Below, piece by piece: positions 39,796 through 53,950 of a DNA stretch of 64,000 bases. The position numbers and the translations under genes were made by a program. The stretch comes from an uncultured Oleiphilus sp. (GTDB lineage: Bacteria; Pseudomonadota; Gammaproteobacteria; Pseudomonadales; Oleiphilaceae), in the NCBI GenBank assembly GCA_913020045.1, contig CAJWBE010000012.1, forward strand, positions 35,783 through 99,782, in the 5' to 3' direction. Position 1 is the first letter of the stretch; every line of letters starts with the position of its first letter. The notes under the pieces were generated by a model. It was not told the origin of the DNA. It worked only from the letters and a program-made list of their open reading frames with translations, and made no database searches.

Positions 39796-39833
39796 TGGCA
39801 TGAATAAGCATGTGTTTGGCATGAAATGTCATG
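39796..39833 (+). promoter_or_regulatory. tandem TGGCATGAA repeat upstream of araC-1
   Basis: TGGCATGAA at 39796 and TGGCATGAAATG at 39817; 21-bp spacing. Confidence 0.6.
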
Positions 39834-39955
39834 TTTAAATCTGCTTTCATAAGTTACAAGGCTTACTAAGCCATGCTTGGAATAAGCTTTTTTGATCGTA
39901 GTGATAGTCTTATAAAAATAAAATAGAGTCTGTATGGGCTTAGCGGAGGCAGTTA

Positions 39956-40948
39956 ATGATGGCGAAATCGTATATTCTGACGAGTTGGGTAAATGCATTG
40001 CTTAGCGGCCTGAAAAATGACGGCTGCGATATTGATAAGATATTGATACATGCTGGTGTCGCAGCAGATTCTCTTGATCAAGGTTATTGCTCTTTAAGTA
40101 AACTGCAACAAGTTTTTGATAGCGCTCAACTTATCTATGGCGATTACCTTGGAGTGTCCTCCAATAAAGGTGTGACACCGAGCTCTTTTCAGTCTCTATC
40201 CATATCCATTCTTACCTCGAAAAATCTATACGATGGCTTTTCCTTACTTGCCAAGCATAATCAAATCATAACCAATGTGTTGGATTTTGTTGTCGATGAC
40301 AAGCAGGGCGGACGGTTCGGTTTCTATATAGAAGATGGTTACGAAATTTCCTTACCGTTAGTTGGTGCAGTGTTAGGTCGAGCAATGAGGACAGCAAGTT
40401 TTATTCAGCCAGGTTCCTTTTTAATTACGCATATTTCCTTTGCTTATTCACGTCCAGAAAATGCCGATTCTTATGAAAAATACTTTGGCGCAACTATTGA
40501 GTGGGAGGCTGAGGTTAATGCTGTCTATTTCAATAACAGTATCTTTTTCTCCGATTCAATTCATGCCAATGAACAGCTCTGTCAGAGTGCTGAAAAGTCT
40601 TGGTTGAAGGAAGTCTCGACCAGTCAGCAGCTTGATTTCATGCAACGTGTAAAGACGTATATCTCATCCCATATATCGGAAGGGAGGATTACGGTTCAGT
40701 CTGCTGCTGACCACTTTGATATGAGTGTCAGAACTTTCCAGCGTCGTTTAGATGACAGTCAGATTAGTTTTAGTGATTTAGTGTTAGGTGTCAGACGAGA
40801 TGAGTCAAAAGCGCTCCTTTCCTGCCGTGCTTCTACGGTGACAGAAACGGCATATTCCTTGGGTTTTTCTGATGCAGCTAGTTTTTCCCGAGCCTTTAAA
40901 CGTTGGTTTGGTCTTTCTCCCGAGCAGTATCGGAAGTCGCTCTGTTAA
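39956..40948 (+). CDS. AraC family regulator (arabinose-binding-domain-like N-terminus)
   Basis: C-terminal HTH QSAADHFDMSVRTFQRRLDDSQISFSDLV..YSLGFSDAASFSRAFKRWFGLSPEQYR. Confidence 0.9.
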   Translation: MMAKSYILTSWVNALLSGLKNDGCDIDKILIHAGVAADSLDQGYCSLSKLQQVFDSAQLIYGDYLGVSSNKGVTPSSFQSLSISILTSKNLYDGFSLLAKHNQIITNVLDFVVDDKQGGRFGFYIEDGYEISLPLVGAVLGRAMRTASFIQPGSFLITHISFAYSRPENADSYEKYFGATIEWEAEVNAVYFNNSIFFSDSIHANEQLCQSAEKSWLKEVSTSQQLDFMQRVKTYISSHISEGRITVQSAADHFDMSVRTFQRRLDDSQISFSDLVLGVRRDESKALLSCRASTVTETAYSLGFSDAASFSRAFKRWFGLSPEQYRKSLC

Positions 40949-41043
40949 GCGACTGATATCACCTATTTGAGCATGGTACAAAAGGTTTTTTTTCAGTAGG
41001 TGATATATCTGGCTTCTTCTTTCAATTTTCCAGTTTAGCAGGT

Positions 41044-41078
41044 TGGCACCATTTACCCTGCTGCTTGGCATCTGCTGC
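41044..41078 (+). promoter_or_regulatory. tandem TGGCA repeat upstream of araC-2
   Basis: TGGCACC at 41044 and TGGCATC at 41066; 22-bp spacing. Confidence 0.5.
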
Positions 41079-41217
41079 CAATTCCTTGCTTGTTTTCTGT
41101 GATAGTTTTTCTCAGGCAAGCAACAAAAATAATAGAAACATCGCCTTTTAATTCACTTATCGTTTGTGCTTGTGCGTCTATATATTAGAAGTCGATGGGG
41201 AGAGTTGTGCTTGAATC

Positions 41218-51912: not shown

Positions 51913-52230
51913 GTTTTAATCAAGAATAAGTGGTTTGTTAAAAAATAGATTGTTCTATTAGCGAATGTAGTGTTCTTTAATTATTCGGATCGCATCTAAT
52001 CGGTTCTTTTGGTCTTGGCCTATCATATATAGATATGGCCCAATTGAAGAGTTTAAGTGGGTGCGAATAGTTGCTATGCAGGTGTGTAAAATGGCCATGA
52101 TTTCAGGAAGTTGGACAGGGTCACATTTCGTGAGTGCAAATCAAATATTAAGATGGTTTTAAACGTCCAGCGCTATACAAAGCGCTGGACTGGAGGTGTA
52201 AATTCGAATGATAGAAAGACTGAAATATGG

Positions 52231-53685
52231 CTATCGAATAAGCAATTTATACACGAGTTTATGCATGAAACTACCATAAGGCGGATGGAGTGATGTACCG
52301 GTAAATAAGCGCCCCTGGCTTAGAATTGATTTCGCTTTAGAAAGTGTGAGGAAGCCTTCTTTTCCATGATAATGACCCATACCTGACTTGCCGATTCCAC
52401 CAAAGGGTAAATCATCTTGGCCTACATGCATCACCGCATCGTTAAAGACCAAGGCACCGGAGTGAGTATGATAGGCAATGTTCTTTTGCAGTTTTTTATC
52501 AAAGCTATATAGATATAGAGCGAGCGGCCTTGGACGTTGATTGATAAACTTAATGGCTTCATCTACGGTCTTGTAGGTAATGATGGGGAAAAGAGGGCCA
52601 AAGATCTCTTCTCTCATTAGCTCACTATTTTCGGGAGGGTTGATAATGAGAGTCAAAGGTAGTTTTCGACCCTTTCTTCTCAGGTTTAGTTTACTGTCTG
52701 ACATGGGCTCGATGCGTGTGCCATGTTCTGCTACTTCATTTAGAGCATGACTAAGGCGCTTGTATTGGCGATCATTCACAACACTGGTGTAATCATTGTT
52801 TGAAGCTGCGTTAGGGTACATTTTGTTAAACTCGGAACGCACTTCGTTGATCAATGTTTCGAGTTTATTTTCAGGGCAAAGAATATAATCAGGTGACACA
52901 CAAGTCTGACCCGCATTAAGTGTTTTACCCCACAGAAATCGTTTTACTGCTTGTTCGATTGGAATGTCTGGCGCAATTAAGGCGGGCGATTTCCCGCCAA
53001 GTTCTAAGGTGACGGGTGTTAGATGTTCCGATGCGGCTCGCATGACGTGCCGCCCGACTTGAGTGGAGCCTGTAAACAATAAATGATCAAACGGAAGTGC
53101 TGAGAATTGACTGGCGACATCTGCGCCACCTTCAATAATTGCGACTTCATTTTCTGAGAAGCAATTTGCAATTATCTTCTTAAATACCTGATTAGTGTTG
53201 GGTGTAAATTCAGACAGTTTGATCATTGCTCTGTTGCCCGCGGCGATGGCTGTTACTAATGGTCCAAGAGCAAGAAATACCGGGTAGTTCCATGGAGCGA
53301 TTATCCCTACGACGCCAAGTGGTTGATAAATAACCTTTGCGCGAGCTGGCTGAAATACCATATTTACTTTACGCTTTTCCGGTTTCATCCATTTTTTAAT
53401 ATTCTTCGTCGCATAATGAATTGCCGATAATGAAGGGATGATGTCACCCATCAGAGACTCGTCTTTTGATCGGCCTCCAAAATCCTCGTCTAAGGCCTCA
53501 ACGAGGGCTGTTTGGAATTCAATGATGGTGCTTTTTAGTATTTTTAGCTGTTTGATTCTGTCTGTTGAGCTGGGGTAGGGGGCTTTGAGATAGGCTTCCT
53601 TTTGACTCGTCAGGAGATTTAGCAAGCGTTGATCATTTGTGTTCGACTCTTGGCTTTCTAGCCCTCGTAGTTTTAGGTTTCCCAT
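52231..53685 (-). CDS. aldehyde dehydrogenase (coniferyl-aldehyde-dehydrogenase-like)
   Basis: GVVGIIAPWNYPVFLALGPLVTAIAAGN, LLFTGSTQVGRHVM, VTLELGGKSP, NAGQTCVSPDYIL. Confidence 0.92.
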   Translation of the reverse strand: MGNLKLRGLESQESNTNDQRLLNLLTSQKEAYLKAPYPSSTDRIKQLKILKSTIIEFQTALVEALDEDFGGRSKDESLMGDIIPSLSAIHYATKNIKKWMKPEKRKVNMVFQPARAKVIYQPLGVVGIIAPWNYPVFLALGPLVTAIAAGNRAMIKLSEFTPNTNQVFKKIIANCFSENEVAIIEGGADVASQFSALPFDHLLFTGSTQVGRHVMRAASEHLTPVTLELGGKSPALIAPDIPIEQAVKRFLWGKTLNAGQTCVSPDYILCPENKLETLINEVRSEFNKMYPNAASNNDYTSVVNDRQYKRLSHALNEVAEHGTRIEPMSDSKLNLRRKGRKLPLTLIINPPENSELMREEIFGPLFPIITYKTVDEAIKFINQRPRPLALYLYSFDKKLQKNIAYHTHSGALVFNDAVMHVGQDDLPFGGIGKSGMGHYHGKEGFLTLSKAKSILSQGRLFTGTSLHPPYGSFMHKLVYKLLIR

Positions 53686-53766
53686 CGGTTCACTCTCTAG
53701 ACAAAGTACAGATAAATTAATCTGAGTCAGTCTACTGTTTTAATAGTGAGGTTGAATGTTTGGGGA

Positions 53767-53793
53767 TGCCAGGTAGTTTAGCTGTTCGTGCCA
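53767..53793 (-). promoter_or_regulatory. tandem TGGCA repeat upstream of aldehyde dehydrogenase
   Basis: Minus strand: TGGCACGAA (from 53793) and TGGCATCCC (from 53771); 22-bp spacing. Confidence 0.5.
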
Positions 53794-53918
53794 TGTAAGG
53801 ACTTTGATTTAGCTTTTCAGATTCAACAATCAAGAGCTTCTTAACTTATCTTTCTCTCAGTGATTATCAGTGTATTCGTTCGCATTAATTGTGTGTCCAA
53901 TTCCACAAACACTATCTG

Positions 53919-53950
53919 TGGCATGAAATGCATAGTTGAGTGGCGCCCAC
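53919..53950 (+). promoter_or_regulatory. tandem TGGC repeat upstream of lipoxygenase-like gene
   Basis: TGGCATGAAATG at 53919 and TGGCGCCCA at 53941; 22-bp spacing. Confidence 0.55.

What the first reader, a model, noticed from the sequence alone, without database searches (positions are those of the whole stretch)
39796..53950. Island-wide tandem TGGC(A/G) operator with 21-22 bp spacing in front of at least seven genes
The same direct repeat recurs: 39796/39817 (araC-1), 41044/41066 (araC-2), 43192/43214 (lipase-chaperone-like), 44574/44595 (PAE-1), 48863/48884 (PAE-2), 53919/53941 (lipoxygenase-like) and, on the minus strand, 53793/53771 (aldehyde dehydrogenase). Three sites share the 12-mer TGGCATGAAATG. 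Two-helical-turn direct repeats are a classic AraC-family site layout, and three AraC regulators lie in the island. This points to one coordinated regulon, so the genes probably form a single functional system.
Basis: partly seen in the sequence, partly recalled or inferred. Interest (0 to 1): 0.85.

Follow-up and report, generated by a model that had tools for sequence, protein, structure and literature searches.

The report
Shared activator switch across lipid-oxidation island
Seven promoters in one genomic island carry the same paired DNA landing site for an AraC-type gene activator, placed at a fixed distance from the start of transcription, so a lipid-oxidising enzyme, its export machinery and secreted esterases are probably switched on together.

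Summary
All seven TGGC(A/G) tandems are at the stated coordinates, all lie between genes, and 6 of 12 island intergenic regions hold one (0.03 expected). An unguided scan of all 5-mer direct repeats puts this one first. The 10-base core alone is not rare (194 in the genome), but a profile with flanks scores the seven at 19-25 bits and nothing else above 11.6.

New evidence makes them activator operators. A -10-like TANNNT lies exactly 59 bp from the first half-site in five of seven (0 of 20,000 random anchor sets; 1 of 32 off-island core matches). AraC (PF12625) regulators chosen by protein similarity in other genomes carry the same 21/22-bp tandem beside acyl-CoA dehydrogenase and desaturase genes, mostly with TANNNT at 57-58. 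All 20 such regulators have R-x-x-Q-R in the first recognition helix. Of the island's three, only AraC1 has it, so AraC1 is the best candidate.

PAE-1 is the weakest site (poor leave-one-out, no -10). PAE-2 has a second switch: a c-di-GMP-I riboswitch starting about 6 nt after the predicted start site. Binding, ligand and a 'single functional system' remain inferred. This is a new regulon with a classic layout.

The parts
39796..39833 (+). tandem operator before araC-1, spacing 21; TACAAG at offset 59 as weak -10
   Evidence: (24.8 bits)
41044..41082 (+). tandem operator before araC-2, spacing 22; -10-like TAGTTT at 41103
   Evidence: (23.3 bits)
43192..43230 (+). tandem operator before the 43307 gene (divergent GDSL-like gene on the other side), spacing 22; -10-like TAGCGT at 43251
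   Evidence: (21.6 bits)
44574..44611 (+). tandem operator before PAE-1, spacing 21; weakest site, no -10 at offset 59, but both halves read TGGCGAGTTT
   Evidence: (19.4 bits)
48863..48900 (+). tandem operator before PAE-2, spacing 21; -10-like TATTAT at 48922
   Evidence: (19.6 bits)
48940..49031 (+). c-di-GMP-I riboswitch aptamer in the PAE-2 leader
   Evidence: Rfam RF01051, 55.4 bits, gathering score 35
53755..53793 (-). tandem operator before aldehyde dehydrogenase, spacing 22; -10-like TAGACT
   Evidence: (21.7 bits)
53919..53957 (+). tandem operator before lipoxygenase, spacing 22; -10-like TATTCT at 53978
   Evidence: (21.1 bits)
39956..40948 (+). AraC1, PF12625 + HTH_18 regulator; HTH1 helix SVRTFQRRL; best candidate activator
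   Evidence: Pfam, helix comparison
41218..42213 (+). AraC2, PF12625 + HTH_18 regulator (RGLQNRL)
42285..43025 (-). GDSL-like lipoprotein esterase (weak), divergent from 43307
   Evidence: PF13472 E 0.012, below cut-off
43307..44401 (+). membrane-anchored protein of unknown family; 'lipase chaperone' not confirmed
44683..46692 (+). PAE-1, pectinacetylesterase-family secreted protein
   Evidence: PF03283
49111..51846 (+). PAE-2, pectinacetylesterase + F5/8-type-C domain
   Evidence: PF03283, PF22633
52231..53685 (-). aldehyde dehydrogenase
   Evidence: PF00171
54082..56316 (+). lipoxygenase, no signal peptide of its own
   Evidence: PF00305, PDB matches
56307..56726 (+). small twin-arginine-signal protein, partner of LOX
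   Evidence: RR N-terminus in 23 of 23 LOX loci
56837..58316 (+). tatA, tatB, tatC
   Evidence: translations, PF00902 for TatC
58362..60029 (+). acyl-CoA synthetase
   Evidence: NCBIfam
60155..61174 (+). AraC3, PF12625 regulator (RSLSRKL); no operator of its own, probably last gene of the LOX operon

Best explanation
The seven tandems are class II activator operators of an AraC-family (PF12625) regulator, most likely AraC1. Inferred mechanism: when the N-terminal domain binds a lipid-type ligand, two subunits sit head to tail on the two TGGCRnnnA half-sites two helical turns apart. The downstream subunit overlaps the -35 region and recruits RNA polymerase to the -10 that lies 57-59 bp from the first TGGC. 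This switches on AraC1 itself, AraC2, the 43307 gene, the esterase-like PAE genes, ALDH, and the putative LOX - Tat-signal partner - tatABC - acyl-CoA synthetase - AraC3 operon. PAE-2 has a second gate in its leader, a c-di-GMP-I riboswitch. Shown here: the sites, their restriction to the island, the fixed -10 distance, the same arrangement beside PF12625 regulators elsewhere, and the riboswitch match. Inferred: binding, activation, the identity of the regulator, the ligand, and the operon.
For: Enrichment in island intergenic regions and top rank in an unguided scan. Whole-genome profile: seven island sites at 19.4-24.8 bits, next best 11.6 and 10.4, both inside coding sequence. None of the other PF12625 paralogs in the genome has such a tandem in its flanking intergenic DNA. 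TANNNT at offset 59 in 5 of 7 (araC1 TACAAG), 0 of 20,000 random anchor sets, 1 of 32 off-island core matches. Regulators picked by protein similarity to one AraC: 18 of 30 loci have the tandem at 21/22 in non-coding flanks, while each other spacing has at most 3, typically between AraC and acyl-CoA dehydrogenase; AraC1 homologs: 5 of 29 at spacing 21, at most 1 at each other spacing, three beside fatty-acid desaturases; 17 of 21 of these sites have TANNNT at 57-58. R-x-x-Q-R in helix 1 of all 20 such regulators and in AraC1, not in AraC2 or AraC3. Predicted PAE-2 start (~48934) lies 6 nt before the riboswitch aptamer.
Against: No binding or expression data. The profile was trained on the seven sites; in leave-one-out PAE-1, PAE-2 and ALDH do not stand out from background. 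PAE-1 has no -10 at the right place. Over the whole HTH domain AraC3, not AraC1, is closest to the external set. Random PF12625 regulators of the order show no TGGC tandem, so only some clades use it. LOX cassettes elsewhere lack this sequence. External regulators are partly orthologous, so counts are not independent events.
Confidence: 0.78

Rival explanations
1. The tandems are real operators but AraC3 (or AraC3 with AraC1) is the regulator, AraC3 being fed back from the end of the LOX operon.
For: AraC3's HTH domain is the closest to the L084/L090 regulators that flank TGGC tandems (52.6% and 46%), it has the highest whole-HTH identity to the 20-member set, and it is the island protein nearest to AraC regulators of LOX cassettes in several other genomes.
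Against: Its first recognition helix (RSLSRKL) lacks the Q present in all 20 TGGC-associated regulators; AraC1 has it.
Confidence: 0.3
2. Each AraC protein controls its own subset of sites: TGGCATGAAATG-type sites by AraC1, TGGCACC-type (araC2, perhaps ALDH) by AraC3, TGGCGAG-type (PAE-1) by another protein, giving a layered cascade rather than one regulon.
For: Site flanks differ: TGGCATGAAATG at araC1, chap and LOX; TGGCACCATTT at araC2, like the acyl-CoA dehydrogenase type; TGGCGAGTTT twice at PAE-1.
Against: The -10 offset of 59 is shared by araC2, chap, PAE-2, LOX and ALDH alike.
Confidence: 0.25
3. The tandems are chance or composition, or belong to an unrelated protein.
For: The 10-base core is common genome-wide (194) and three sites fail leave-one-out.
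Against: Shuffles, unguided ranking, fixed -10 distance and recurrence beside PF12625 regulators elsewhere.
Confidence: 0.04

Closest known systems
AraC/XylS-family class II operators (araI1-I2, XylS Pm)
   Same: Two direct half-sites about 21 bp apart, downstream half close to the -35, -10 at a fixed distance (known cases from general knowledge).
   Different: Half-site TGGCRnnnA differs from TAGC/TGCA types; one island carries seven copies; regulators are of the PF12625 class.
AdpA box TGGCSNGWWY (Streptomyces; PMC8653842)
   Same: AraC-family protein recognising a TGGC-first half-site.
   Different: AdpA boxes are degenerate and spread over hundreds of genes; the strict 21/22-bp tandem used here is not part of the quoted AdpA consensus.
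PF12625 AraC regulators beside acyl-CoA dehydrogenase / fatty-acid desaturase genes in other genomes (L150-L178, L218, L222, L229)
   Same: Same tandem core, spacing and, for most, the same -10 distance.
   Different: One site per locus; the island has seven with partly different flanks. No paper describing these was found in the library searched.
EnLOX, 13-lipoxygenase of Enterovibrio norvegicus DSM 15893 (PMC9498203)
   Same: Same LOX family; its strain's locus (L055, 44% identical over the best segment) has LOX, a Tat-signal protein, ALDH, acyl-CoA synthetase and AraC.
   Different: Different operator; no PAE genes or tat genes detected in the fetched locus.

Membership tests
AraC-type class II tandem operator | two direct half-sites at 21-22 bp | tested here: met
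   7 of 7
AraC-type class II tandem operator | -10 at fixed distance downstream, proximal half near -35 | tested here: met
   5 of 7 TANNNT at 59, araC1 TACAAG; PAE-1 fails
AraC-type class II tandem operator | bound by an AraC-family protein | not testable with these tools
   needs EMSA or DAP-seq
AraC-type class II tandem operator | associated with an AraC-family gene | tested here: met
   three PF12625 regulators in the island; same tandem beside PF12625 regulators elsewhere
PF12625 AraC regulators | Arabinose_bd N-terminal domain + HTH_18, above the Pfam cut-off | tested here: met
   AraC1 and AraC2 both domains; AraC3 PF12625 119.6 bits
c-di-GMP-I riboswitch | Rfam model above gathering score, in a leader | tested here: met
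   55.4 vs 35 bits, full length, 48940-49031
Lipoxygenase PF00305 | domain above cut-off | tested here: met
   65.1 bits vs 23.6
Lipoxygenase PF00305 | C-terminal isoleucine as iron ligand in classical members | tested here: not met
   all eight LOX inspected end in SPWN; a family trait, since EnLOX is active (PMC9498203)
Lipase chaperone (43307 gene) | Pfam lipase-chaperone match | tested here: not met
   no such match at E up to 10

The most novel reading that the evidence does not exclude
The island is a self-contained, ligand-gated oxylipin system. A PF12625 activator senses a fatty acid or oxylipin and turns on a lipoxygenase that has no signal peptide and is exported as a hitchhiker on a small Tat-signal partner, together with a dedicated TatABC, ALDH and acyl-CoA synthetase for the products, and secreted esterases of which one also needs c-di-GMP.
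Probability: 0.3. Interest if true: 0.78.

Novelty: new member of a known kind. Interest (0 to 1): 0.55.

Why it matters
It turns a visual repeat into a testable regulon: one activator, seven promoters with predicted start sites, and a matching operator class beside lipid genes in other genomes. It ties a rare bacterial lipoxygenase to a specific regulator, to a conserved Tat-signal partner and, through PAE-2, to c-di-GMP, which gives direct ways to ask what bacterial lipoxygenases are for.

Tried and rejected
'Generic operator of all PF12625 regulators': rejected, none beside the other own-genome paralogs or beside 29 order loci chosen by Pfam score. Closest AraC3 homologs (26-34% identity): no clear operator, 4 of 29 loci with hits that look like coding or chance. 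Operator conserved with LOX cassettes: rejected. The operator profile over 397 genomes gave single hits at about the chance rate; only those beside AraC genes were followed, and then re-tested by choosing loci through the regulator protein. Lipase-chaperone identity of 43307: not supported. Plasmid search for PAE-2: no close relative. The first single-protein scan of genome contigs for LOX found nothing; the alignment scan worked.

Full report
Observation. In the island, spacings 21 and 22 hold three and four TGGCR pairs while other spacings from 10 to 60 hold 0-2. All seven pairs lie between genes. Six of 12 intergenic regions contain one, against 0.03 in dinucleotide shuffles; in an unguided scan over 8704 five-letter words and all spacings from 8 to 45 this repeat ranked first, 6 regions against 3-4 for the best word in each of 12 shuffles. 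The bare core is common, 194 matches in the 3.70-Mb genome, so the core alone is no evidence. A profile of the full 46 columns is selective: the seven score 19.4-24.8 bits and the next best places are 11.6 and 10.4 bits, both inside coding sequence. That search is partly circular. In leave-one-out tests on 175 kb of the same genome, araC1, araC2, chap and LOX beat nearly all background; ALDH, PAE-2 and above all PAE-1 do not.

Promoter geometry. This is the strongest new evidence and did not enter the motif. Measured from the first TGGC, the hexamer TANNNT begins at exactly 59 bp in araC2 (TAGTTT), chap (TAGCGT), PAE-2 (TATTAT), LOX (TATTCT) and ALDH (TAGACT); araC1 has TACAAG there and PAE-1 has nothing similar. 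No set of seven random anchors out of 20,000 in the same intergenic DNA reached five. Among 32 off-island matches to the core, one has TANNNT at 59. The second half-site then begins 37-38 bp before the -10, the arrangement of class II AraC-type activator sites (general knowledge of AraC/XylS regulation).

Other genomes. The profile run over 397 genomes of the order gave single hits at about the chance rate, but several were intergenic and next to AraC genes. To avoid choosing by operator, I took one such regulator protein and fetched 30 loci by protein similarity alone, the seed included. Eighteen have TGGCR-21/22-TGGCR in non-coding flanks, no other spacing from 10 to 45 exceeds three, and most sit between AraC and an acyl-CoA dehydrogenase. 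Homologs of AraC1 gave five sites at spacing 21 and at most one at any other spacing, three of them beside fatty-acid desaturases. Of 21 such sites, 17 have TANNNT at 57 or 58 bp. The orthologs are not independent, but at least two regulator clades are involved. PF12625 regulators picked only by Pfam score, and the other paralogs in this genome, show no such tandem, so this is an operator of some clades, not of the whole family.

Which regulator. All 20 regulators flanked by the tandem carry R-x-x-Q-R in the first recognition helix. AraC1 (RTFQRRL) does; AraC2 (RGLQNRL) and AraC3 (RSLSRKL) do not; 4 of 22 other paralogs compared do. AraC1 also has the highest summed identity over the two helices. 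Over the whole HTH domain AraC3 is closer, so AraC3 stays a serious rival.

PAE-2. Rfam finds a full-length c-di-GMP-I riboswitch at 48940-49031. The -10 fixed by the operator (48922-48927) predicts a start near 48934, six bases before the aptamer. A diguanylate cyclase gene lies just upstream (46878-48706; GGDEF and 7TMR-DISM domains), with a frame break near 47085. The genome has only two other matches of this class.

What the island does. LOX belongs to a family of mostly marine gammaproteobacterial lipoxygenases that includes EnLOX, a 13-lipoxygenase (PMC9498203). In GTDB genomes the recurrent neighbours are ALDH, acyl-CoA synthetase and an AraC gene. In 23 of 23 loci the gene right after LOX encodes a 112-133-residue protein with a twin-arginine start, while the LOX proteins inspected have no signal peptide; here tatABC follow. 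Export of LOX as a passenger of this partner is an inference. The PAE genes are not part of the conserved cassette, so 'one functional system' is a local feature of this island.

Verdict. The tandems are very probably functional activator sites forming one island regulon. The layout is classic, the sequence class and the seven-fold use are new here, and the regulator, ligand and physiological role are open.

Noticed in passing
54082-56726; L046-L069: In 23 of 23 lipoxygenase loci the next gene encodes a 112-133 aa twin-arginine-signal protein, while LOX lacks a signal peptide: a likely Tat hitchhiker pair, here followed by tatABC.
   Followed up: partly
48940-49031: c-di-GMP-I riboswitch in the PAE-2 leader, directly after the predicted transcription start; two other copies in the genome precede genes for apparently secreted proteins.
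   Followed up: partly
46878-48706: Diguanylate cyclase reading frame is broken near an A8 tract at about 47085: assembly error, pseudogene or slippage.
   Followed up: no
39502-39528 and 61233-61259: Imperfect direct repeat ending in TGGTAGCGGGGGC, like the reverse complement of a tRNA-fMet 3' end, brackets the island; island GC is 43.4% vs 46-47% outside. Possible attachment-site remnants; no integrase seen.
   Followed up: partly
L052, L053, L055, L061, L062, L054, L063, L064 LOX upstream: LOX promoters of Enterovibrio, Grimontia and Vibrio carry a different two-turn direct repeat, GAYAA-N16-GAYAA (8 of 11): same architecture, other half-site.
   Followed up: partly
54082-56316: This LOX family ends in SPWN rather than the classical C-terminal isoleucine iron ligand.
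   Followed up: no
46464-46646: Alanine/glutamate-rich repeats (AAEAAR/AAAK) at the PAE-1 C-terminus; similar stretches open some LOX homologs (P0002, P0003).
   Followed up: no
G239, G357, G393 (genus g108): Genomes with over 100 AraC3-like candidates in the first look and the closest AraC1 homologs (31-36%), next to a gene for a GCGGSGSFSP-type lipoprotein.
   Followed up: no
61598-63860: IS21-type istA/istB-like pair just outside the right edge of the island (read from the ORF translations).
   Followed up: no
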